Source: a virus. From it: a stretch of DNA of 26,292 nucleotides. Numbering within the stretch: the stretch's first letter is position 1; each line of letters begins with the position of its first letter. Below are positions 14,013 through 26,292 of the stretch, in pieces. A program made the translations under genes and the position numbers. The notes beneath the pieces are model-generated. The model saw only the letters and a list, made by a program, of their open reading frames with translations. It made no database searches and was not told the DNA's origin. The DNA is taken from IMG/VR virus record IMGVR_UViG_3300013103_001331, positions 1 to 26,292 of that record. One strand, given 5' to 3'.

Positions 14013-14672
14013 ATGGCACAGCTTACAGTTGAGTTTATTCGAGACACTCTCTCGGACGGCTTTTATTTGGGCGTGGATGTCTTAAGTGGGGTAGATGTCG
14101 ATCCTGTGTGTATTGTCGTGCGTAAGGGTGCAGCTAGCACGCCTGAATACATTGCGCGTATCGCGACTTTAACGGACTTAGCGGGAATACCGGCGGCACC
14201 TGTTGTAGCAGGATACAACCAGTTCTACAGTCAAGAGTTCGACCTAGTTGTACCTGTGGCGGGTGACTACATCCAGTTGGTATCTCCTCCGGGCTTGTGG
14301 GATTACCTAGGGTATGTTCCGGGTACGTACCATGAGGTTGCGGCGTATGACCCGGTACATAAAGTGTGTGAGGTAGTTCCTGGTGATGAGTTTCCTGCGT
14401 ACGCTGGACGCTTGTCATTTGCGCTTTTTGATTCAGGGCTACTTCCCAAGGGGTCGTTCGTGAGCGCGGGTGCGGCTACCCTCGATGTGTACGGGGGCGC
14501 TTGGGATGATGAACTCTATTATCGGTTACAGACAATCCACACATCTATTGAACAGCTGCAGGACGCCATCAACAAGTTTGTATCGTTGCAAACAGAAGCC
14601 CAGTCACTCGTGGACAACACTGAGACGTACCTGGATGAGTACGAGGGTACGAGTACGGAGATCTACACGTGA
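14013..14672 (+). CDS. Probable virion protein, first of three related genes
   Basis: A protein of 219 aa from the ATG at 14013, chosen because GAGG lies 10 bases upstream and a promoter lies just before it; a longer in-frame version to 13926 would run into the resolvase start. I do not recognise a named family. Residues ~18-56 share a pattern with the next two proteins: a strand, a Pro, IxV, a short loop, TPEYIARIATLTDL. The middle is beta-rich (FDLVVPVAGDYIQLVSPP) and the C-terminal ~45 residues (LQTIHTSIEQLQDAINKF...) form a probable coiled coil. The beta domain plus coil suggests a structural or fibre-associated protein. Its GTGA stop/start overlap couples it to the next gene. Confidence 0.65.
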   Translation: MAQLTVEFIRDTLSDGFYLGVDVLSGVDVDPVCIVVRKGAASTPEYIARIATLTDLAGIPAAPVVAGYNQFYSQEFDLVVPVAGDYIQLVSPPGLWDYLGYVPGTYHEVAAYDPVHKVCEVVPGDEFPAYAGRLSFALFDSGLLPKGSFVSAGAATLDVYGGAWDDELYYRLQTIHTSIEQLQDAINKFVSLQTEAQSLVDNTETYLDEYEGTSTEIYT

Positions 14673-15037
14673 GTGTACGCATAGACCTTAAACAAACGAA
14701 GACCGTCGAGGCGGGTCCTGTTTACCGAGTGCTCAACCAGGTGACGTATGCTGAGAATATCCCTTCTCAGATCTTTGTACACGATACTGAGACGGAAGAG
14801 TTCGTGCATGTTGCCACGGTGTGGGATCTTCAAACTTACCCGTTTACTCGAGACGAGGCCATCAGCGGACTCATCCCGTATTACTTAGCGGCACAATGCA
14901 CGAAGGATTATTCCGACATCCAGTCCGCATTGGACTTCACTGCTCACGTGTACAGCCGTGTAGAATGGCTTGTACGCGATTACGAGACGGCGAACGATGT
15001 CTTTGAGGGCGTGCTCACGCACTCCATCACGAGTTAG
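14669..15037 (+). CDS. Probable virion protein, second of three related genes
   Basis: A protein of 122 aa that starts at a GTG overlapping the previous stop (GTGA). The whole protein aligns by eye with the N-terminal ~125 residues of the next gene: VYRV, then P-S/H-Q-(S)-IFV, then F-x2-VA-x3-DL, a Tyr, a hydrophobic stretch, and DYSD-(I/L)-x3-A(L/M) followed by RV-x2-LV. This is a clear paralogue pair, whereas similarity to the first gene is limited to the IxV...EYIxxIATxxDL segment. Function is not recognisable. It corresponds to one beta domain with a C-terminal helix and no coil extension. The next gene starts two bases after the stop, so all three are one transcript. Confidence 0.65.
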   Translation: MSVRIDLKQTKTVEAGPVYRVLNQVTYAENIPSQIFVHDTETEEFVHVATVWDLQTYPFTRDEAISGLIPYYLAAQCTKDYSDIQSALDFTAHVYSRVEWLVRDYETANDVFEGVLTHSITS

Positions 15038-15039
15038 CC

Positions 15040-16080
15040 ATGGCCAACACAGAAATATCCCAGACACGTGAGCAGGTTCTTAACGCTGCGGGTGAGCAAG
15101 TTTACCGCGTAATTTCGGTAGTGGCTGCCAAGGGGGATTTGCCACACCAGAGTATTTTTGTGTTGTCCATTAATGATGCCTCCGATCCTACGTCGGATAC
15201 ATTCCTACGCGTAGCGTCACCTTTCGATCTCACGAACCTCTACACTGATAGGCCAACGGCGATTGCGAATAGTGCAACGATTTTCCTTTCTCCCTACGTG
15301 AATAATGACTATTCGGATCTTGAAGTGGCGATGCAAGCGACGCAAGAGATCGATGGGCGTGTAAACACGTTGGTAACAACTTGGCAGACGTATTTCGGAG
15401 AGTTCTACACTCCCACATCAGAAACGCTTACGTTTCCCAATTTCGATCCAAGTTACGTGCAAGAACTCAAGGCGGCATACGCAGCAGCTAAAGAGGCGAG
15501 AGAGACCGCTGAGTCGGATCTTGAAGACAAAACGACCACCCTTACAGATGCCGAGGACGCGCTTGCTGATGCGGTTGGAATGGTTGAGCTCTTCGCATAC
15601 CTGGTGCAGGTTTGTGACAAGCTCATGCCTGCAACTACGGGCTACTGGGCTATTTTGAATGCTGAGATTACGAGTTACGTTGGCGGAACTAATAGTCTGT
15701 TTAACGCTATGAAGACTGCGTACGAGGTGTGGTCTACTATTCCATGGGTGCCCTCGTCCCCTCCAGCCCCGACAGAAGATTATTTTGATATGTATAACGC
15801 GCTAAACGCGTGGTACGGCACCATCAAAAATGATTGGGAAACTGTCGGTGTTCCGCAGGTAGCAAATGTCACTGCTACTCTCACGGACGCCTGTAATAAC
15901 GCATCCTCGGAGTATACCAGCGCCCTCAACGACCAAACCAATGCCGCGTCGGATGTCGCTGATGCTCAGGAAGCAAAAGATAAGGCGACCGCCACACTGG
16001 CGGCCGCCCAAGAAGCGGAAGACGCAGCTCTCGCCGCGGTAGTGGCGGTGTGCCCGGACTTCGATCCTGCGTCCGTCTAG
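15040..16080 (+). CDS. Probable virion protein with coiled coils, third related gene
   Basis: A protein of 346 aa. Residues ~1-125 are a paralogue of the whole preceding protein (shared VYRV, SIFV, DL, DYSD and RV-LV positions). Residues ~145-190 (AAYAAAKEARETAESDLEDK and onward) and ~295-340 (rich in A, D, E and K, for example VADAQEAKDKATATLAAAQ) are predicted long heptad-like helices, with a beta/aromatic domain (WSTIPWVPSSPPAPTEDY) between them. This head-plus-coil design fits a fibre, whisker or appendage protein. Its TAG stop lies in a CTAG palindrome that also supplies the stop codon of the convergent 455-aa gene. No enzymatic motif seen. Confidence 0.65.
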   Translation: MANTEISQTREQVLNAAGEQVYRVISVVAAKGDLPHQSIFVLSINDASDPTSDTFLRVASPFDLTNLYTDRPTAIANSATIFLSPYVNNDYSDLEVAMQATQEIDGRVNTLVTTWQTYFGEFYTPTSETLTFPNFDPSYVQELKAAYAAAKEARETAESDLEDKTTTLTDAEDALADAVGMVELFAYLVQVCDKLMPATTGYWAILNAEITSYVGGTNSLFNAMKTAYEVWSTIPWVPSSPPAPTEDYFDMYNALNAWYGTIKNDWETVGVPQVANVTATLTDACNNASSEYTSALNDQTNAASDVADAQEAKDKATATLAAAQEAEDAALAAVVAVCPDFDPASV

Positions 16081-17444
16081 TAGTAGGAATTCTTTTTACA
16101 GAGCTCGTGGGACTGACGTTCTTGGTAGATGAAGTTCTGGAAGTTCCTGTAGATGTCCTTGAGTGTACGTATGTGCAATTTCCAAGGAAGGAGTCCGCCT
16201 CCACGGTTGTAGTTTCTCCAGCGGTACGTTGCCGCTAACTCCCCGTCGTACGTAGATTCGATGTAAAGTAGCGTGTAGCTCGTGCGTTTCCAGCCGTTAT
16301 GGTAGATAGGGCTGTGGTTACGCTGAGCAAGTTCTAGTAGGACGGCTTTTTCATTTGTAGACATACGTCGATAAGGAGGTTCTATCAGAGTAGTCTTGTA
16401 CTTTTCCAGAAATCGTCGAGCAGCTTGGAAGCCCCCGATTTCTCGCATGTAGTTCAGCGGTGAGGTTTTGGGGTTGATTGCGAAGATCAACCGGTTGCGG
16501 TGGACTTTCAACGTGCCGTAGCATTTTCGCCTCTCCACTCGTTTGTCAAGTTCCCCACTGTTGGCAAGCAAGAACCGGAGTTCTGGTCCGGTGAAGGGTA
16601 CGTGTACTCTTTTGACGATGTTCTTTGCGATCTCTAAAGTGCTCTCATCATAGTATCCGTTACACCAGCGAGGAGCGCTTCTGTATTCACCCCAACAGGG
16701 CTCCTTCATCGAGCATTGAGAACACACACTTTTCTGGAATTGAGCGTAGCGACTGCGTTCGGATGCGCCTTTTTGCCTCTTTTCCAAATTCGCTCCTACG
16801 AGAGTGAAGTCGTGTTCTTTGATGTTTCGGTGCGCCTCGGGCACGCCTACGTTAGATGTCAGGGTAGACCCGATAGCCCGAAACCTACCTATTTGAGTTT
16901 TCCAGTACTGTGTGCGCTCCCAATAGTCTTCGATATCGAGGTCGGGAGCGGGAGTCTGAGCGAGTGCGCCCAAGCTCATGAGCGGACACGCCCCCCCACC
17001 TTCCACTTTTACCGGGCAACTCGTACACCCATCGATATACTTTTCTGGAAAGCTGCACCGATTTCGGATGTCAATGCCATACACGTATTCAGGGACGCCG
17101 TTAGTCATGAGCGTTACAGGGAGACGATCCGAGTCGTTCAGCGCACTACGGCACACGGGATCTGCTTCGTTAGTCGCGATCAAAAAACGCGATTCATGAT
17201 CGGATGGCCCGTACCTGTACTTTGCGCAGTGGTTTATGAAAGGGAGGATCATGAAGGTGTCACCGAGGTACTTTTGGGTTTGGGGGTCCTCTGCGATTTC
17301 TCGGTGAAGTTCCCTATCAGTCAAATCAATATTGGCGGGAGTTCGTGCAAACAGCAAACAGCACGGCACCCCCCGAGAGAGGTACCGGCTGTTGCTGAGG
17401 CACGCCGCCGTGAACACGTATTCCACGTCGGTTTTATTTATCAT
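16077..17444 (-). CDS. Unknown protein with two Cys clusters, RT-linked
   Basis: A protein of 455 aa that I do not recognise. Two Cys clusters stand out: C130-x9-C140-x2-C143-x9-C153, and C241-x2-C244-x5-C250-x10-C261. The C-x2-C-x5-C core of the second is a spacing used by some iron-sulfur and SPASM-like domains but also by zinc sites. The C-terminal third (residues ~310-440) is basic and aromatic (for example FQAARRFLEKYKTTLIEPPYRRM), compatible with nucleic-acid contact. No RT, nuclease or helicase motif is visible. Its start overlaps the end of the reverse transcriptase gene by 11 bases, so the two are translated together and probably act in the same process. Last gene of the run; its stop is shared in a CTAG with the convergent gene. 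Confidence 0.7.
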   Translation of the reverse strand: MINKTDVEYVFTAACLSNSRYLSRGVPCCLLFARTPANIDLTDRELHREIAEDPQTQKYLGDTFMILPFINHCAKYRYGPSDHESRFLIATNEADPVCRSALNDSDRLPVTLMTNGVPEYVYGIDIRNRCSFPEKYIDGCTSCPVKVEGGGACPLMSLGALAQTPAPDLDIEDYWERTQYWKTQIGRFRAIGSTLTSNVGVPEAHRNIKEHDFTLVGANLEKRQKGASERSRYAQFQKSVCSQCSMKEPCWGEYRSAPRWCNGYYDESTLEIAKNIVKRVHVPFTGPELRFLLANSGELDKRVERRKCYGTLKVHRNRLIFAINPKTSPLNYMREIGGFQAARRFLEKYKTTLIEPPYRRMSTNEKAVLLELAQRNHSPIYHNGWKRTSYTLLYIESTYDGELAATYRWRNYNRGGGLLPWKLHIRTLKDIYRNFQNFIYQERQSHELCKKNSYY

Positions 17445-18591
17445 GAGCTTTCCAATTGTCGATGGCCACGTCGAGTTCCGCTTTCAGTTTATCCCCCTTG
17501 TCCGAATGGACTTGGCGAATAAAGCTGACTTTACCTCGTAAATACTGCAAGAGCTCTTCAGGAGTCGTCATCCCAGCGCGTTCGTGCTGGGTTTCGATCC
17601 CGCTAACCATGCAGTTGTGAACAATAGCGCGGATACGTAAGTATTCGTTGTACTCGATGTTGGGTTTTTGGTTCATCACGATGCCGAGCATCTTCCTGCG
17701 GTAGAAGGCGCTCGCGATCCGAGTCTTAGCACGATTTATCTTGTAACCAGACGACTCGACAATCTGAGTTACGTCTTTGGCGATCTCCTTTTTCTCTGCT
17801 GCGGGAATGTCTTGTCCGCATGTGATGGTGAGGTCATCGGCGTACCTACTGTATCGCCAGTCCCACGGGGACTCTAGTCCTTCTCGCTTGTTCCGGTCGT
17901 TGAAATATTCGAGGATGCGCTGGTCGAATCGGTGGTTTGCTACGAGGTTGCAGATTGCTCCGGATGTAGGCGCACCTTGAGGAGTACCGTGAAAGAACTG
18001 TTGTCGCGGTGTTCCCCTGTATTTATCATCATCAATACCCTTGGAATTTTTAATGGGGACGGTCATGAGGTTCGCTAGAAGTCCGCTGACATGAAACGAG
18101 TACCCGATGGACTGGAAGTAGTGACGAATCCAAGCCCGTCGGGTACTAGGAAAGAAGTTCTTGAGGTCCATCTTGATGTAGACACCTTGCTTGGGGCACG
18201 TGTGCTGTTGGGGTGTCTGACCTTTGGGTGCAGTGTCGCAAATATCACAAGCGGGGATGTGCCGGGAAACTGCGTCTACAATGGAGCGACTGGGGCGGTA
18301 AGCAGTTACATGGTCTCCTAGTTGTTCCTGGAGGGGAAGCAGCAGCCGCGCGTGCAGGCGGTGTAAGAAGACTTTCATCAACGGAGAGGGTGCGTGAATG
18401 ATCCGTTTCTTCCCATTGCTTTTGGGAATGTGGAACACCTTGTATTGATCACTCTTATTTTGGAGGAGGTGCCACATGGTCTTGTTCCGGAATCCTATAA
18501 AGAACGCCAGGGTACAGTCGTCCAGGAGGAGGAATTCCGTATCCGGAACGGTGATTGTTTCGAACGTGCTCTCTGTGAATCCGTAGGTCAT
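17434..18591 (-). CDS. Retron-like reverse transcriptase with Cys-rich insertion
   Basis: A protein of 385 aa with a full RT core. KSNGKKRIIHAP (57-68) is motif 1; AYRPSRSIVDAVSRH (97-111) is motif 2, with the retron NAxxH position reading DAVSRH. MDLKNFFPS (141-149) is motif A with D142. GTPQGAPTSGAICN (202-215) is motif B, and YADD (250-253) is the catalytic pair. KINRAKTRI (284-292) is motif D, and MLGIVMNQKPNIEYNEYLRI (301-320) corresponds to the retron vTGlvVN...lR segment. LRGKVSFIRQV (351-361) matches the retron C-terminal G-x3-F-x4 segment. Residues 112-136 are an insertion with C115, C118, H130 and C132, a possible zinc knuckle. There is no maturase or endonuclease domain, so not a group II intron. 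Motif B has QGxxxS rather than the diversity-generating retroelement form. ATGA overlap with the upstream gene. Confidence 0.93.
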   Translation of the reverse strand: MTYGFTESTFETITVPDTEFLLLDDCTLAFFIGFRNKTMWHLLQNKSDQYKVFHIPKSNGKKRIIHAPSPLMKVFLHRLHARLLLPLQEQLGDHVTAYRPSRSIVDAVSRHIPACDICDTAPKGQTPQQHTCPKQGVYIKMDLKNFFPSTRRAWIRHYFQSIGYSFHVSGLLANLMTVPIKNSKGIDDDKYRGTPRQQFFHGTPQGAPTSGAICNLVANHRFDQRILEYFNDRNKREGLESPWDWRYSRYADDLTITCGQDIPAAEKKEIAKDVTQIVESSGYKINRAKTRIASAFYRRKMLGIVMNQKPNIEYNEYLRIRAIVHNCMVSGIETQHERAGMTTPEELLQYLRGKVSFIRQVHSDKGDKLKAELDVAIDNWKAHDK

Positions 18592-19232
18592 TCGATCTCG
18601 CCTCCTCCCTTTATCGAGGTCTCCACAACTTCGCGGAACTCCTCGTCTACGGGAAGGCGCGTGAGCTCGATGTTTCTACGACAGCGAGCTTGGCCGGGTG
18701 TGCATTTGTTGGCGTGATAGTCTGCGACGTGTTTACAGATCGCGCAGATGACTGGAATATCTTCCTTGGGAGTGTGTAGAAAAACTGTAGGCATCGGGAC
18801 ACTTAAGTTGTGGATGTCGGATACCGCGTGTGACAACGTATAAGCCAGCCGTACCTTGCGCGTGACAGGTTTCTTACTTTCAGGGTCGATTTCTTTATCA
18901 CGCGCAAGATACGTTGGAACTACGAGGAGCCATTCTCCTTCCTCAATTTCCTTGATTTCGGGAAGGTTCCCATCGGTGATACGCTGCCACTTCAGGGCGT
19001 CGTTGTCACGTTTCAGACCGATTTTACGCTGCGACTCGAAACGGATACGGTTGAGCGACTTCTTAATGACGTCGTCAACCTTCAAAATCAAGCTGTACCG
19101 AAACAAGCTTGTTGCTAGTTTTCGGTGAGTTTTGGGAATTAGGTAGAAACGGTCGAAAGGGAAGTACTCAAAAGTCTGCGTACCTCCGTCCAACCGCAAC
19201 TGCTTCAGTTTGACGCAGTATATTTCGGCCAT
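18588..19232 (-). CDS. Unknown protein with C-terminal Cys motif, RT-linked
   Basis: A protein of 214 aa, not recognised. Its N-terminal half is mixed alpha/beta and basic (SLNRIRFESQRKIGLKRD). The C-terminal part carries CAICKHVADYH, then C-x5-C (KCTPGQARC), giving a CxxC, H, C, C set that could bind one zinc ion. The stop overlaps the RT start as ATGA, so expression is coupled. Because it occupies the DNA directly upstream of the RT, a standard retron RNA gene cannot lie there unless it is inside this coding sequence. Upstream, a 17-base gap separates it from the VWA gene, so the run could extend back to 20878. Function unknown; an RNA- or DNA-binding partner of the RT is a guess from context. 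Confidence 0.7.
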   Translation of the reverse strand: MAEIYCVKLKQLRLDGGTQTFEYFPFDRFYLIPKTHRKLATSLFRYSLILKVDDVIKKSLNRIRFESQRKIGLKRDNDALKWQRITDGNLPEIKEIEEGEWLLVVPTYLARDKEIDPESKKPVTRKVRLAYTLSHAVSDIHNLSVPMPTVFLHTPKEDIPVICAICKHVADYHANKCTPGQARCRRNIELTRLPVDEEFREVVETSIKGGGEIE

Positions 19233-19249: not shown

Positions 19250-20872
<1,623 letters not shown>

Positions 20873-20878
<6 letters not shown>

Positions 20879-20901
20879 TCCGTTGCCTCCTAACGTATAA
20901 T
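20873..20901 (+). promoter_or_regulatory. Sigma70-like promoter for 20940 gene
   Basis: A perfect -10 box TATAAT lies at 20896-20901. A weak -35 candidate TTGCAT (20873-20878) lies 17 bases upstream. Predicted start near 20908 gives a ~32-base leader before the ATG at 20940. The 61-base gap 20879-20939 also carries the minus-strand AGGAGG site of the VWA gene. I found no clear minus-strand promoter here. Confidence 0.5.
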
Positions 20902-20939
20902 TGGTTGTGTTTCACTACCCCAGAGGTTGAGGGACAGAT

Positions 20940-21947
20940 ATGACAACTATTCCGTATGACCAAACATGTGATCCTGGATACTCGCATCTTCGAGTGGTGC
21001 TGGACCGCTTCCCTGAGCTCAAGGAAGTGGCCAAGACCGCCAACATCGATGACAACGAGTTTTCGAATCTTCCGGACGACTCTTTTGCATGGCCTGGAAA
21101 GCGTCGTTATCCTCTCCACACGCGAGAACACACTGCACTCTCTTTAGGTTATCGTAAGTTGGCAGGCGCGGTGCCAACTGAGGTAGACCAGATGTTGGAG
21201 AAGGCAGCGTCCGTGTATGAGATCGATCCCTCGATCTTTGAGGTCTCCGAGGCTGAAAAAACAGCGTCGGAGGAACGTTACGTTTTCCCAGAAAAACAGC
21301 GATTCCTGGTGAAAACAGCTGAGGATGTGAAGCTTGCGGAGCAACGCATCCGGGAAGTATACCCCCAGCTCACTGTTGAAGATCGTGCTGAAGGTTTGTT
21401 CAATCTCTGCAAGTTCGCAGAGGAATTGGGTGTTACACTATCTCCTTCTACCGAGAAACTAGCGGGATTTACGCTGACCAGTACTCGAAAGCTCAAGGAC
21501 TGGTTGGAGGCGCGTCAAGAGGTTACTCGAGGTCGAGTTTACGGAGACGCGTTTGCCAAGTTGGCTGAATCCCTGGAGGGTGTCGCTCCTGAAATTCATG
21601 ATCGGACGTTCCAGGTTGAATTGGCTTCCGCGATTCACGAGCTTGACAAGGAGGCAGGGATTACCAATCTCTATGGGCGTAAGCTCCCTGATCCTATCCA
21701 GACGGTATTCAATTCGGAGAAGCTAGCAGCGAATACTTTGGAGTTCGGTACCGGTATGATGCTGGATAAGAACAAGCTCGCGGCTCTTCCTCTTTCATTT
21801 TGGAAGGACCTCTTGGGGGACAGCATAGCAGCTGAAATTTCCAGTGATGGTGAAACCGTCAATCCTGAGGCTCTGATGCAGCTGCTCCCCACGTTACCCG
21901 CTGACGTCAAAGCCATCGCACAGAAGCAACTAGCGTCGTACGTATGA
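20940..21947 (+). CDS. Unknown phage protein (FAWPxKRxYPL motif)
   Basis: A protein of 335 aa. Residues ~45-68 (LPDDSFAWPGKRRYPLHTRE) follow a pattern I have seen in proteins of many phages and prophages, in which a short FAxPxxRxyPl segment precedes an H-x4-A helix. Their role is not established to my knowledge, but they are often near head or capsid genes. The remainder is mostly helical and acidic, with several K/E-rich stretches. The protein lacks signal, membrane or catalytic motifs. A GAGGG site precedes the ATG and a promoter with perfect -10 lies just upstream. The stop overlaps the next start as ATGA. It interrupts, on the opposite strand, the interval between the VWA and MoxR genes. 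A head or scaffold role is possible but not shown. Confidence 0.65.
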   Translation: MTTIPYDQTCDPGYSHLRVVLDRFPELKEVAKTANIDDNEFSNLPDDSFAWPGKRRYPLHTREHTALSLGYRKLAGAVPTEVDQMLEKAASVYEIDPSIFEVSEAEKTASEERYVFPEKQRFLVKTAEDVKLAEQRIREVYPQLTVEDRAEGLFNLCKFAEELGVTLSPSTEKLAGFTLTSTRKLKDWLEARQEVTRGRVYGDAFAKLAESLEGVAPEIHDRTFQVELASAIHELDKEAGITNLYGRKLPDPIQTVFNSEKLAANTLEFGTGMMLDKNKLAALPLSFWKDLLGDSIAAEISSDGETVNPEALMQLLPTLPADVKAIAQKQLASYV

Positions 21948-22690
21948 TTGAAGCTTTGGAAAAACTGGGGAGTAGCATCTCAGCTATCCCTGAGTCCCTT
22001 CCTGAAACGTCCCGAATTCGTTCTATAGAGTTTCTAAAGAACGCGGACGATAGTCGGTGTGCTGCGGTATTGTACGCGGCTGCGCGGAACGCTTACAGTT
22101 TGGGTTTGCTGTCCTGGGAACCTGAAACTATCTGGCTTACGATGGAAAAGGATGGCATTGACCTGGGACTTGTGAGTCGAGACAAGTTGCTGGCAGTTAA
22201 CGCTCTCATTGTTAATCCGCAATTCTATTGGGACCACCTCGTATTTGAGAACACAGTGCACGCGTTCGTGGGGAACATCAGCAATCCTGACGTAATACAG
22301 GAGTGCCATCCCTCGGAGATGGCATGGACTGTGTACGAGGCTGACGTAGTACGAGGGATGGACCCAGAAGGCAAGGGCGATGCCGAGTTTGATGAGGATG
22401 TGCAGCAGTACATCGCTGTTTGCCTGAAGCGAGCAGGCTTCATTTGCGCGCCAGTAAACCTGGAATTCGCGGAGGATAACCTCGTAGAGCTCCAGCCAGA
22501 TGAGTCAAAAAATTTACGAAAAGAAGTTCAAGATGCTTGGGCGAAGTTGGATAAGGGGGCCCTCCGGAATACCCAGTTCGCGGAGGACCCCCTCGGAGTG
22601 AACTTGTCTCGGCTCGCAGGAACCTACGTTTACGTAGAGGACCTCGCGAAATCCATGGGACAGGACTTCCTGGAGCTCAAGGGAGTTTGA
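21944..22690 (+). CDS. Unknown phage protein, coupled to the FAWP-motif gene
   Basis: A protein of 248 aa, start overlapping the preceding stop (ATGA). Not recognised. It is mostly helical in the first half (CAAVLYAAARNAYSLGLLSW, then WEPETIWLTMEKDGIDL) and acidic overall, with no catalytic motif visible. Close to its 3' end the coding sequence contains a strong inverted repeat (22555-22592). Its last 14 bases overlap the convergent 128-aa gene. Same transcript as the 335-aa gene. Function cannot be given; a head-assembly role would only be guessed from the neighbouring terminase. Confidence 0.6.
   Translation: MIEALEKLGSSISAIPESLPETSRIRSIEFLKNADDSRCAAVLYAAARNAYSLGLLSWEPETIWLTMEKDGIDLGLVSRDKLLAVNALIVNPQFYWDHLVFENTVHAFVGNISNPDVIQECHPSEMAWTVYEADVVRGMDPEGKGDAEFDEDVQQYIAVCLKRAGFICAPVNLEFAEDNLVELQPDESKNLRKEVQDAWAKLDKGALRNTQFAEDPLGVNLSRLAGTYVYVEDLAKSMGQDFLELKGV
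22555..22592 (+). other. Intragenic inverted repeat / hairpin
   Basis: The left arm GGGGGCCCTCCG (22555-22566) and right arm CGGAGGACCCCC (22581-22592) pair over 12 bases with one G-T, around a 14-base loop. It lies in coding sequence about 100 bases before the stop of the 248-aa gene. There is no T-run after it, so it is not a canonical terminator; it could slow polymerase or protect mRNA ends. Confidence 0.6.
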
Positions 22691-23063
22691 ACTCTGGAGT
22701 GATTTCCAGCCCCATGTCCGGCAGGCTGCGACGTCCTCTATCCGTTAGGATGTTCAGGTCTACCCAAGCGTCGGTCTCCTGCAGAGCCCGAGACAAGTCT
22801 GCGAGGTAGTCGTTGCAATTCAGCTTCTGCGCGAGCGGACGCAACGCGCGCTGAACGTAGATGCGTTCATAGACCGGCAGGATGAGGAGGAGCGTGATGA
22901 GTTCGTACATCACGTCCTCCACGGGGGGCGCCTTCTCGAACACGTCCTTGAGGGCGGTGAGGCATTGCATGCGACGTTTTATCAGCTGGGTTTCGGCTTT
23001 TACGGGATCGTCAGCGTAGTCCGCGTGACTGAGGACCCCCGCGAGTTCCAGTAGTCGTGACAT
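22677..23063 (-). CDS. Unknown helical protein downstream of MoxR ATPase
   Basis: A protein of 128 aa, largely helical with a leucine-rich middle (VMYELITLLLILPVYERI), which could be a hydrophobic helix in a protein core; it is too irregular for a firm membrane call. Not recognised. It starts one base after the MoxR stop, so it is co-translated with it and is a likely partner. Its 3' end overlaps the convergent 248-aa gene by 14 bases. Small helical proteins encoded next to MoxR/VWA pairs often act as adaptors, but no such family could be matched here. Confidence 0.65.
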   Translation of the reverse strand: MSRLLELAGVLSHADYADDPVKAETQLIKRRMQCLTALKDVFEKAPPVEDVMYELITLLLILPVYERIYVQRALRPLAQKLNCNDYLADLSRALQETDAWVDLNILTDRGRRSLPDMGLEITPEFKLP

Positions 23064-23064
23064 A

Positions 23065-24315
23065 TCAGCTCCCCCTCAAGGCGCGCTCGACTTCCGTCTG
23101 GGCGTCGTCCAAGCTCGTGTGGATTTTGATCCAGCTCTTGTGTGTCTGGACGTGCCGCATCAGATCGAAGAGGTAGTCCTTGGCGTTCGCCTCGTCGGCG
23201 TACTTCTTGAGCTGCGAAAGGACGCTGACGCGCATCTCATTCGGCAGATCTTCGAGGTACATGACGAAGTTCCCTGCCGTGACCTCGACGTCGGGTTGCA
23301 GGCTGAACATGTAGGTGAGGACGTTGACGTTGAGTTCGGTGATCTTTTCCTGCTCGGACTTGTTGAGGAGGAGCCGCACCGGCTTCCGCGCCATCTTCTT
23401 GTAGTTCAGCACCACGTCCTCCGCCCGGACGGCCGTGCGGTTGTCTTTGAGGTGCTCGACGAGCTGGGTACCCATGTGGATACCGACCGAGGCCGCGAAA
23501 CGGCAGAGTGCGAACTCGTTGTCCAGCGGCTTGTTCATCTTCTCGAGCATGTAAGCATCGAGAGAGATGGTTTGCACCGTGGCCGGACACATGTACTGCT
23601 TGCCCTCTCCCTGCGCCTTCTTGTCGTACAGGTTCTTGGGGTACTGTACGATGAAGTCCAGGACGCCTTCGTGGCACGGACGGCTTTTGCCGTCGTCGAA
23701 GCACTGCCGGTCGCTCATGTGGAACTGATCGCTCGAAGCGTGCGCGACCCAGTCCTTGAACGACTCTAGCGCGAAAAACCACTTCAGACGGCGGCGAAGT
23801 GCAGCGTTGTTTTCGATCTGCGTGACAGCGTACTGCGCCGTTGCCGGGTTCATCAACGCGATGACGATGGCCTCGTCCGGGAGGACGTAGTTGAACATTC
23901 TCCGGTCTTCGATGAGCGAGAAGAACATGGCGATGCTGTGCTGGAGACCCTGGTTGATCTCCTCGAACAGCATGATGGACTTCTCGCCTTTCTTGGGGAA
24001 CACCGACGGAACAAGAAGATCGAAGTAGCCTTCGGGCGAATCCTTGGTGCTCGGGATGCCGGTGCCCACGAGGCCGTAATGCGCGGTGCGGATGTCGTAG
24101 ATGCTCGCGCCCTCTTCGCGGGCGATCTCCGCGATGATCTGGGACTTTCCGATGCCCGCTTCTCCGACGATGCAGATGGCGCCGCGGTGTTGTCGGGTCT
24201 TCCAGGTGAGCAGAATCTGGTCCTTGATCTCCGCGATGGTGGCGCGCGGGATGTCGTACTTGTCCGCGTAATGAAGTTTCTTACCTGCTTCTTCTTCTTG
24301 CCTGCCTCTTGCCAT
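23065..24315 (-). CDS. MoxR-like AAA+ ATPase
   Basis: A protein of 416 aa with a clear AAA+ core: Walker A GEAGIGKS (51-58), Walker B IMLFEEI (114-120), sensor-1-like ALMNPA (153-158), and a basic ALRRRLKWF segment (172-180) with candidate arginine-finger residues. The NQG...A and LPDEAIVIALMNP context matches the MoxR/dynein-related (AAA_5) group, which is known to pair with VWA-domain proteins. The C-terminal ~190 residues are helical and charged. It would form a ring ATPase that remodels a protein substrate together with the VWA protein at 19250-20878. The ribosome site AGAGAGG is present. The one line I counted (23401-23460) is 39/60 G+C, against 27/60 in the adjacent terminase (24541-24600) and 31/60 in the RT (17701-17760). 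Confidence 0.93.
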   Translation of the reverse strand: MARGRQEEEAGKKLHYADKYDIPRATIAEIKDQILLTWKTRQHRGAICIVGEAGIGKSQIIAEIAREEGASIYDIRTAHYGLVGTGIPSTKDSPEGYFDLLVPSVFPKKGEKSIMLFEEINQGLQHSIAMFFSLIEDRRMFNYVLPDEAIVIALMNPATAQYAVTQIENNAALRRRLKWFFALESFKDWVAHASSDQFHMSDRQCFDDGKSRPCHEGVLDFIVQYPKNLYDKKAQGEGKQYMCPATVQTISLDAYMLEKMNKPLDNEFALCRFAASVGIHMGTQLVEHLKDNRTAVRAEDVVLNYKKMARKPVRLLLNKSEQEKITELNVNVLTYMFSLQPDVEVTAGNFVMYLEDLPNEMRVSVLSQLKKYADEANAKDYLFDLMRHVQTHKSWIKIHTSLDDAQTEVERALRGS

Positions 24316-24335
24316 GCTGGTAACCTCTCTTTGTT

Positions 24336-25934
24336 ATGAGCAACTCCCGCTCTACATCATTATCCGTCGTCGCTGAAGCCTGGATTCAGCTTGACGGAAA
24401 GGATTTTCGGTTAACGGACTGGCCGATGCACCGCGCCTTCTACGACGGGCGTTATCGACGAACTTTGTTTAAAACTGCGCGCCAGGTCGCGAAGTCTACT
24501 ACGTTAGCGAATTTCTCCATCATCGAGTGCAGTCTTATACCACACTTCTCCACCATGTTTGTTAGCCCTTCCAAAGAGCAGACAACGCGATTTTCGAATA
24601 CTCGTATCGGAAAGACTATGCGGTACTCTCCGATCATTAACGAACAGTTCTTACGTACAGATCTTGCAGACCGTGTTTTCCATAAACAGTTTACGAATGG
24701 TAGCGAGATGCTCTTTACCTACGGTTGTGATGATGCTGAGCGTTTACGTGGCCCGTCTACTGACCGCAATATGTATGACGAGGTTCAGGATATTCTTTAC
24801 GACCCGGTCATCACAGTGGGTAATGAGACTATGGCCGAATCGGATTACGCTTTTGAGACTTACGCTGGAACTCCTAAGACGATGGAGAATACCATCCAAT
24901 ATCTCTGGGAGCTCAGTACCCGGAGTGAGTGGGTAATGAAGTGCGACGGGTGTGGTAGTCACGTTTTTGTGGATAGTGAAAAGTGCCTAGGTAAGTATGG
25001 ACCAGTTTGTCCGAAGTGTAAGCACTACTTGAATCCGTTTACAGGTCAGTGGATCGACATGGTTCCCAGTAAGAAATTGCAGGGATTTCACATCAGTCAA
25101 CCGATGATGCCCCGTAACGTTCCCTTAGCTATGCGTTCCGCTGGTAGGTCGAGTGCTGAGGTTAAACAGGCAGAGTTGCGCTGGGAGCGTATCCTGCAGA
25201 AGTTTGAAGAGACGCCCCTATCTACTTTCCGTAATGAGGTTCTGGGCGTCTCAGATGAGATTGGTAGTCGGCTCTTGTCGCAGGAGGAGCTCGAGTCGCT
25301 TTGTACGGGGGATCCTCTGCAACAGTTCCCAGATCGTAAAGCCCTTCAAGGAATTACGCAGATTGTCGCCGGAGCTGACTGGTCGGGGGGCGGCACGACA
25401 GGCGTCTCACGTACTGTTCTTTGGATCTGGGGTTGGCGTCCGGTTGACCAGAAACTCATAACCTTGTTTTACAAGGTATACCCTGGTACTAACCCGGTGA
25501 CTGCCGTAGAAGAAATCGCGCTGGTCTGTAAGCAGTATCAAGTGTCGATGTTCTGTGGAGATGCTGGAGAGGGCGCGCTGGCTAACGACCTCATGCGTAC
25601 TCATCTCGGGCATCACCGGGTAATCCAAGTGCAGTATGGGATGCAGGCTAAGGCACTTAAGTTCAATCAGGTAGACCGTTATACGGGTGATCGTACCACC
25701 CTGATCGATAATTACTTCATGATGCTGAAGCAAAAGAAAATAGAGTTTGGTCCCCTGGCGGAGATGCGTGTTGCTATCAACGACATCCTTAACGAGTACG
25801 AAGACGTTACACACACGGACCGAAAGGTGTGGCGCCACTCCCCGCAGAAGCCCGATGACTGTTTGCATGCGGGCCTCTTTGGGTGGTTGGCGTGGAAGAT
25901 AATCAATAAAGACTTCAAATTCTGGCAAGAGTAG
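24336..25934 (+). CDS. terL: Terminase large subunit (ATPase-nuclease)
   Basis: A protein of 532 aa, typical for TerL. It powers packaging of DNA into the prohead and cuts the concatemer. Features: Walker A-like TARQVAKST (47-55), the phage-type motif with Ala in place of the usual Gly before Lys53; Walker B with D148/E149 in NMYDEVQD; a zinc-ribbon-like pair CDGC (203-206) and CPKC (225-228) between ATPase and nuclease; RNase H-like nuclease acids D348 (GADWSGGG), D409 (CGDAGEG), and D507/D508 (KPDDCLHAGLFGW). The order is complete, so it appears functional. It starts 20 bases from the divergent MoxR start with no strong ribosome site. No small terminase or portal gene is in the window. It is immediately followed by the structured region. 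Confidence 0.93.
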   Translation: MSNSRSTSLSVVAEAWIQLDGKDFRLTDWPMHRAFYDGRYRRTLFKTARQVAKSTTLANFSIIECSLIPHFSTMFVSPSKEQTTRFSNTRIGKTMRYSPIINEQFLRTDLADRVFHKQFTNGSEMLFTYGCDDAERLRGPSTDRNMYDEVQDILYDPVITVGNETMAESDYAFETYAGTPKTMENTIQYLWELSTRSEWVMKCDGCGSHVFVDSEKCLGKYGPVCPKCKHYLNPFTGQWIDMVPSKKLQGFHISQPMMPRNVPLAMRSAGRSSAEVKQAELRWERILQKFEETPLSTFRNEVLGVSDEIGSRLLSQEELESLCTGDPLQQFPDRKALQGITQIVAGADWSGGGTTGVSRTVLWIWGWRPVDQKLITLFYKVYPGTNPVTAVEEIALVCKQYQVSMFCGDAGEGALANDLMRTHLGHHRVIQVQYGMQAKALKFNQVDRYTGDRTTLIDNYFMMLKQKKIEFGPLAEMRVAINDILNEYEDVTHTDRKVWRHSPQKPDDCLHAGLFGWLAWKIINKDFKFWQE

Positions 25935-26059
25935 TGCTGCTATCCTTTCGCTGGGCGCTTACCAGCAGAGAGTGCCTCGTGTATGTAACACGAAACTCTC
26001 CGGCGTGTAGCACGCCGTAGGAGTGGGTTCTCCTTCCAGCACTGAAAAAGGTACTGCTG

Positions 26060-26153
26060 TGAGTCCCTGTAGCCCGGCCCTAGCCGAGGTTGATGTACAA
26101 GGTCCGATGAGTACATCATCCTCAGAGAGGGCTCGGGCTACCAGTGGATCTCA
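26060..26153. ncRNA. Long imperfect hairpin (about 34 bp)
   Basis: Pairs by segment: TGAG/CTCA, TCC/GGA, CTG/CAG, TAGCCCG (26070-26076)/CGGGCTA (26134-26140), GCCCT/AGGGC, an internal loop, GAGG/CCTC, a T-T mismatch, then TGATGTAC (26091-26098)/GTACATCA (26111-26118). The 12-base loop is AAGGTCCGATGA. Single-base bulges separate several segments. This many matched segments in 94 bases is unlikely to be chance and has the bulged look of a functional RNA rather than a perfect terminator. Confidence 0.7.
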
Positions 26154-26174
26154 GGTATTGCTAGCGTAATGGAG

Positions 26175-26252
26175 TCACTTCCTCCGCTGCATGTCTCGAG
26201 CCGCGTGACAACGTAGTTGTAACGCGCCGAGCATGTCGGCGGAGGTATGTGA
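26175..26252. ncRNA. Second long imperfect hairpin (about 29 bp)
   Basis: Pairs: TCAC/GTGA, CCTCCGC (26181-26187)/GCGGAGG (26239-26245), CATG/CATG, CTCG/CGAG, CGCGT/ACGCG, ACAAC/GTTGT, with loop GTA at 26213-26215 and small internal loops or bulges between them. Its segmented form resembles that of the hairpin at 26060-26153, from which it is separated by 21 bases. Confidence 0.7.
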
Positions 26253-26292
26253 AGCCATTTGCCAAGCCAGCCGCAGTCGTTACCTGTTGGGA

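What the first reader, a model, noticed from the sequence alone, without database searches (positions are those of the whole stretch)
16077..19232. Phage-borne three-gene reverse transcriptase cassette of unknown type
Three genes on one strand overlap in order: 214-aa Cys-motif protein, retron-like RT (ATGA overlap), 455-aa protein with two Cys clusters (11-base overlap). The overlaps indicate a single functional unit. Retron-like RTs are known mainly as host defence elements with an RNA just upstream; here a coding gene occupies that space and both partners are unrecognised. The unit may belong to the phage's own anti-defence, counting, or RNA-templated DNA synthesis, but this is inference.
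Basis: partly seen in the sequence, partly recalled or inferred. Interest (0 to 1): 0.85.

Follow-up and report, generated by a model that had tools for sequence, protein, structure and literature searches.

The report
Phage family's built-in reverse transcriptase operon
A whole lineage of large, uncultured bacterial viruses carries, in every relative with enough sequence to check, an intact reverse transcriptase (an enzyme that copies RNA into DNA) locked in an operon with two metal-binding proteins of unknown type, which suggests these DNA viruses use RNA-to-DNA copying in their own life cycle rather than as an optional defence gadget.

Summary
In detail: three overlapping genes (214 aa, RT 385 aa, 455 aa) lie at 16077-19232, minus strand. 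The unit is really a four-gene operon; a metallopeptidase-VWA gene precedes it by 17 bp and its MoxR-type ATPase lies nearby. The RT keeps all catalytic residues and descends from retron-type RTs, but lacks the retron VTG motif, and no retron RNA was found. The 214-aa (T214) and 455-aa (P455) proteins match no Pfam, PHROG, NCBIfam, PADLOC or PDB entry; one and two four-cysteine sites are their only strongly conserved features. Searching by terminase, not RT, showed that the RT is core: 40 of 40 relatives with enough sequence carry it, 32 distinct phages carry the same six genes, and RT and terminase trees largely agree. These phages have their own DNA polymerase A; at least three also have a multisubunit-type RNA polymerase. 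So this is neither a mobile retron nor a diversity-generating retroelement, but a retron-derived RT module fixed in a phage lineage. Its job is not shown. I favour an RNA-supplied-in-trans role in phage DNA metabolism, with counter-defence close behind. A new, strongly structured RNA follows the terminase in many of these phages; its link to the RT is untested.

The parts
18588..19232 (-). T214: 214-aa protein with one four-Cys site (C163-x2-C166-x10-C177-x6-C184), neighbour of the RT in 32/32 phages
   Evidence: no family hit; conserved Cys
17434..18591 (-). Reverse transcriptase, 385 aa, retron-related, catalytically intact
17833..17844 (-). RT active-site motif YADD (Y 32/32, first D 32/32, second D 31/32 in relatives)
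18196..18249 (-). RT insertion CxxC...HxC before motif A, probable metal site, in 25 of 32 relatives
16077..17444 (-). P455: 455-aa fast-evolving protein with two four-Cys sites
16986..17057 (-). P455 metal site 1, C130-x9-C140-x2-C143-x9-C153
16662..16724 (-). P455 metal site 2, C241-x2-C244-x5-C250-x10-C261
   Evidence: the same spacing is fused to the RT N-terminus in L034
19250..20878 (-). VWA542: HExxH putative metallopeptidase plus VWA domain, first gene of the operon
   Evidence: Pfam DUF2201_N 1.2e-14, DUF2201 8.8e-13
23065..24315 (-). AAA416: MoxR-like AAA ATPase, conserved partner gene of the VWA protein
   Evidence: AAA_5 3.4e-5, phrog_1297 4.9e-33
25935..26292 (+). Start of a large structured RNA region 3' of the terminase gene (runs off the window end; complete in L079 5697-6245); possible but untested RNA partner
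   Evidence: fold z -11.9 in L079, z about -10 for the window part, compensatory pairs in relatives

Best explanation
This is a core phage operon: VWA-metallopeptidase, T214, RT, P455, with a MoxR ATPase encoded nearby. SHOWN: the RT is intact, under purifying selection, retron-related by sequence and tree, and vertically inherited with the terminase in a lineage of large tailed phages; T214 and P455 travel with it and keep 4 and 8 cysteines. INFERRED: RT, T214 and P455 form one ribonucleoprotein-like complex; T214 and P455 bind metal (zinc or iron-sulphur) and nucleic acid; the MoxR-VWA pair assembles or remodels the complex. INFERRED, weaker: because no template RNA is encoded beside the RT and the retron VTG motif is lost, the complex uses an RNA supplied in trans (a phage or host transcript) and makes a short DNA, or extends an RNA or DNA end, during lytic infection as part of phage DNA metabolism (priming, repair or recombination), not as an accessory defence system. 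I give about 0.85 to 'core non-retron phage RT module' and about 0.35 to the DNA-metabolism role.
For: Core: terminase-based search, 40/40 loci with more than 7 kb upstream of TerL carry the RT. Vertical: RT-TerL pairwise identity correlation 0.88, like AAA-TerL 0.91 and VWA-TerL 0.90; 16 of 29 splits shared against 0.23 in shuffles. Active: catalytic Asp and YxDD conserved; omega about 0.2. Physical unit: overlapping genes; in L034 a P455-type Cys cluster is fused to the RT N-terminus. Not a retron: 32/32 have LG at the VTG site; no synonymous-conservation peak and no structured RNA in the cassette; no Rfam match. DNA-metabolism setting: same strand as RNR and RuvC, and in G001 as DNA polymerase A, primase and helicase, opposite to structural genes. 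RT is one of the genes found in all four larger genomes compared, with TerL, RNR, DNA polymerase and primase.
Against: No template, product or phenotype is known. P455 evolves fast (41% identity where TerL is 87%; omega up to 0.5), which fits an arms-race role better than a housekeeping one. Strand and neighbours are weak clues to function. The 40 loci were drawn from the best 80 of 152 terminase relatives; the more distant 72 were not examined, and many loci were too short to tell.
Confidence: 0.42

Rival explanations
1. Counter-defence: the RT complex makes DNA or DNA-RNA hybrid decoys, or copies and neutralises an RNA of a host defence system; P455 is the variable recognition part.
For: P455 is the fastest-evolving gene of the block and keeps little but its cysteines and one Phe. 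The RT comes from the retron group, whose normal business is phage-host conflict (and established knowledge).
Against: Anti-defence genes usually come and go; this one is present in 40/40 relatives and vertically inherited across pairwise terminase identities down to about 0.44.
Confidence: 0.25
2. Phage-carried retron that protects the infected cell against other phages (superinfection exclusion), with P455 or T214 as effector and a diverged ncRNA not recognised here.
For: Best PADLOC profile RT_XIII (3e-59), retron RTs are the closest solved structures; partners encoded in an operon as in tripartite retrons.
Against: No space for msr-msd beside the RT, no conserved or structured RNA in the cassette; VTG changed to LG in 32/32; no effector domain found; strictly core distribution.
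Confidence: 0.15
3. The structured RNA 3' of the terminase gene is the dedicated template or scaffold of this RT, making a trans-encoded retron-like system.
For: Very strong folding (z -11.9), compensatory changes in 6 of 7 pairs of its 3' hairpin, modular GGTACTGCT-flanked units, found at the same place in many RT phages.
Against: RT-positive phages L094, L104, L108 and L114 have no room for it at that site, and L083 and L097 have only 165 and 128 bp; it lies between convergent genes, so a terminator or an unrelated ornate RNA is as likely.
Confidence: 0.1
4. Diversity-generating retroelement acting on a tail gene.
For: Phage-borne RT; tail fibre genes nearby.
Against: No template/variable repeat pair with adenine-biased mismatches in four genomes; RT groups with retron-type RTs.
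Confidence: 0.02

Closest known systems
Retrons (type XIII in PADLOC and others; Ec67, Ec86 RTs solved)
   Same: RT fold and catalytic core; tree places this RT among retron-type RTs; partner genes in an operon
   Different: VTG motif replaced by LG in all core members, asparagine of NAxxH replaced, no adjacent msr-msd RNA found, partners unrelated to known effectors, core phage gene instead of accessory defence
Conserved RT of staphylococcal jumbo phages (vB_SauM-UFV_DC4, MarsHill; PMC10638138)
   Same: RT conserved throughout a group of large phages, function unknown
   Different: No tblastn hit of our RT to them at 1e-5 (their presence in the collection was not checked); no T214 or P455 partners found in phage records
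G2L4 group II intron-like RT (double-strand break repair; PMC12337344)
   Same: Precedent for an RT domesticated for DNA repair
   Different: Group II intron lineage in bacteria; ours is retron-type with metal-binding partners
Phage MoxR-VWA pairs (Vibrio SBP1-like, Roseobacter, Moorella phages)
   Same: Same ATPase and VWA families
   Different: Those phages carry the pair without any RT detected at 1e-5; Moorella phage MTATph1 region inspected, no RT annotated

Membership tests
Retron | Retron-type RT domain | tested here: met
   PADLOC and NCBIfam best hits retron, PDB best hits Ec67 and Ec86 RT, tree
Retron | NAxxH motif (region X) | tested here: inconclusive
   H kept 31/32, A mostly kept, N replaced by D or others
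Retron | VTG motif (region Y) | tested here: not met
   LG in 32/32; VTG present in the sister RT L035
Retron | msr-msd RNA near the RT | tested here: not met
   No gap, no synonymous peak, no structured RNA in the cassette, no Rfam match; an RNA elsewhere cannot be excluded
Retron | msDNA production and anti-phage effect | not testable with these tools
   needs experiment
Diversity-generating retroelement | TR/VR repeats with adenine-specific differences | tested here: not met
   genomes G001, G002, G003, G012
DRT / UG / Abi RTs | RT groups with UG/DRT profiles | tested here: not met
   NCBIfam Drt2 2.5e-7 against retron St85 1.1e-43
Group II intron | Maturase RT grouping with LtrA, intron RNA | tested here: not met
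   group_II_RT_mat 67 bits against cutoff 300; GII RTs used as outgroup in the tree; no intron RNA in Rfam scan

The most novel reading that the evidence does not exclude
A lineage of double-stranded DNA phages depends on reverse transcription as an essential step of its own infection cycle, carried out by a retron-derived RT bound to two new metalloprotein subunits and serviced by a MoxR-VWA ATPase, with template RNA supplied in trans.
Probability: 0.35. Interest if true: 0.92.

Novelty: new variant of a known kind. Interest (0 to 1): 0.76.

Why it matters
Known prokaryotic RTs are mostly introns, retrons, DGRs or defence RTs, present in some members of a group and absent in others. An RT that is as fixed as the terminase in a broad phage lineage, with two dedicated protein partners of no known family, points to an unrecognised use of RNA-to-DNA copying in DNA viruses. 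Because every member examined has it, the question 'what does a DNA phage need an RT for' becomes testable in any cultivated relative.

Tried and rejected
AlphaFold models of P455 (pLDDT 76) and T214 (pLDDT 71) gave no PDB match better than E 0.2. Profile searches of PDB sequences with P455 and T214: nothing. Hidden ncRNA in the cassette: not supported. Extra space between VWA and T214 in some phages is extra ORFs, including a possible HNH gene, not ncRNA. Host-genome origin: the only genome contigs match (L059, labelled Archaeoglobales MAG) has the same length as the contig of phage L011 and the same cassette, so most likely a binning effect. DGR rejected. First RT tree run failed for a thread setting and was repeated. 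P455 and T214 against the L053 proteins by hhalign: only weak (E 0.04 and 0.35). Rfam scans of the RNA 3' of TerL: no match.

Full report
1. What is there. The RT matches Pfam RVT_1 (2.9e-21), PADLOC retron RT profiles (best RT_XIII 3e-59) and retron St85 (1.1e-43, below its curated cutoff). T214 and P455 match nothing above chance in Pfam, PHROGs, PADLOC or NCBIfam or among solved structures by profile; predicted models of moderate confidence have no fold match. Seventeen bases upstream, on the same strand, is a 542-aa HExxH metallopeptidase-VWA protein; its usual partner, a MoxR-like ATPase, is at 23065-24315.

2. The window is part of a large-phage lineage. Baseplate, class II RNR, RuvC and terminase genes surround the unit. 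A contig with 99.8% identity over window 20236-26061 extends it (L079). Relatives of 79-91 kb contain the same order AAA, p128, [two opposite genes], VWA, T214, RT, P455, [three opposite genes], RuvC, RNR; p128 was not detected in the most distant of these (L011). A wider RT-based search found the VWA-T214-RT-P455 block in about 17 distinct phages, down to 31-36% RT identity, in contigs up to 198 kb.

3. The RT is core, not accessory. To avoid choosing phages by their RT, I searched with the terminase. Among the 80 relatives kept (46-100% identity) and the window, 40 loci have more than 7 kb upstream of the terminase; all 40 carry the RT, none lacks it. Thirty-two distinct phages contain the full set of six genes. 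Pairwise identities of RT and terminase correlate at 0.88, close to the MoxR (0.91) and VWA (0.90) values. The RT and terminase trees share 16 of 29 splits, against 0.23 for shuffled labels, with few supported conflicts. One genome with terminal repeats, thus probably complete, is 198 kb (G012). The more distant 72 terminase relatives were not examined.

4. The RT is intact but no longer looks like a retron RT. The catalytic Asp of motif A is conserved in 32/32, YxDD in 31/32 (one YxDN). Selection is purifying (omega about 0.2 in unsaturated pairs). At the retron VTG site all 32 have LG. In the tree, the 32 RTs plus L028, L034 and L035 form a fully supported clade among retron-type RTs; L035 keeps VTG and NAxxH, so the loss most simply happened inside this lineage. 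Twenty-five of 32 carry an extra CxxC...HxC insertion before motif A.

5. The partners. T214 keeps four cysteines in 32/32; P455 keeps eight (seven in 32/32, one in 31/32) while the rest diverges quickly. Neither was found in 50,697 deposited phage records, whereas MoxR and VWA relatives are found there without RT (RT search). In L034, a basal member without T214, a C-x2-C-x5-C-x10-C cluster of the P455 type is fused to the RT N-terminus, and L035 has two such clusters. These fusions are the best evidence that the cysteine modules work directly with the RT. A re-ordered version (cysteine-rich protein, small CxxC protein, RT, MoxR, VWA) is found in a distant phage, L053, though sequence comparison with P455 is only suggestive.

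6. No template RNA in the unit. There is no intergenic room, no peak of synonymous conservation in T214, RT or P455 shared by pairs, no unusual folding in the cassette, and no Rfam match. No DGR-type repeats were found.

7. A possible RNA elsewhere. The region between terminase and the convergent DNA polymerase gene folds far better than shuffles (z -11.9 in L079; z at or below -5 on the forward strand in about 20 of 32 loci, 12 shuffles each). A subset of phages shares a 3' signature, hairpin then CCAGTAC...T(T/A)TACC, whose hairpin has compensatory changes in 6 of 7 pairs. The window lacks a stretch of about 117 bases that L079 has, between 12-base copies of GGTACTGCTGTG, so the RNA appears modular. 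It is missing at this place in four RT-positive phages, so it cannot be the obligatory partner unless it moved. It resembles in kind the large ornate phage RNAs ROOL and GOLLD (PMC12286853), but does not match them in Rfam.

8. What it does. The phages have their own DNA polymerase A and primase, so the RT is unlikely to be the replicative polymerase; G001, G002 and G012 share an RNA polymerase-like protein and G001 has a sigma factor. The RT operon runs with RNR and RuvC, opposite to structural genes. The best reading is a retron-derived RT complex captured for a phage-own task, using RNA supplied in trans. DNA metabolism (priming, repair, recombination) fits the core distribution best; the fast evolution of P455 keeps counter-defence as a strong rival. 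Both are inference. RTs turned to DNA repair are known in bacteria (G2L4, PMC12337344, from search), and staphylococcal jumbo phages also carry a conserved RT of unknown role (PMC10638138).

9. Verdict. Observation confirmed; interpretation partly supported and extended. Not a member of retrons (VTG and RNA criteria not met) although it descends from that group. Novelty: new variant of a known kind, with a real chance of being a new kind of use.

Noticed in passing
window 25935-26292; complete in L079 5697-6245; L080 11597-12206 and others: Large, strongly structured RNA region 3' of the terminase gene, with units flanked by GGTACTGCT and a covarying 3' hairpin; no Rfam match.
   Followed up: partly
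L163 10900-15258 (genome G001): 1452-aa multisubunit-type RNA polymerase protein (Rpb2_6 2.7e-48, Rpb1_2 4.9e-22), with homologues in G002 and G012; a sigma-70 factor is at L163 968-2020.
   Followed up: partly
G011 C1 76388-78985 (record of L022): Terminase large subunit with an in-frame insertion of about 1 kb in one open frame of about 870-900 aa, intein-like.
   Followed up: no
L053 4154-10125: Re-ordered RT module next to MoxR and VWA in a distant phage, with a 488-aa cysteine-rich protein and an RT that keeps VTG.
   Followed up: partly
L165 9619-10392; L180 4134-10724: Phage-encoded tmRNA and tRNAs (38 tRNAs and a tmRNA in L180 of genome G012), which point to bacterial hosts.
   Followed up: no
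L059 (QMZE01000001.1): Phage contig binned as an Archaeoglobales MAG in a public genome record; it has the same length as the viral contig of L011.
   Followed up: partly
window 22677-23063 and 23065-24315: The 128-aa gene product is weakly similar to the MoxR ATPase (E 3e-5 between relatives), a possible partial duplicate.
   Followed up: no
window 14669-16080: Adjacent plus-strand genes (122 aa, 346 aa) look like paralogues of each other.
   Followed up: no
window 19250-20878: VWA542 contains a long Gln-Gly repeat linker (QGQGQG...).
   Followed up: no
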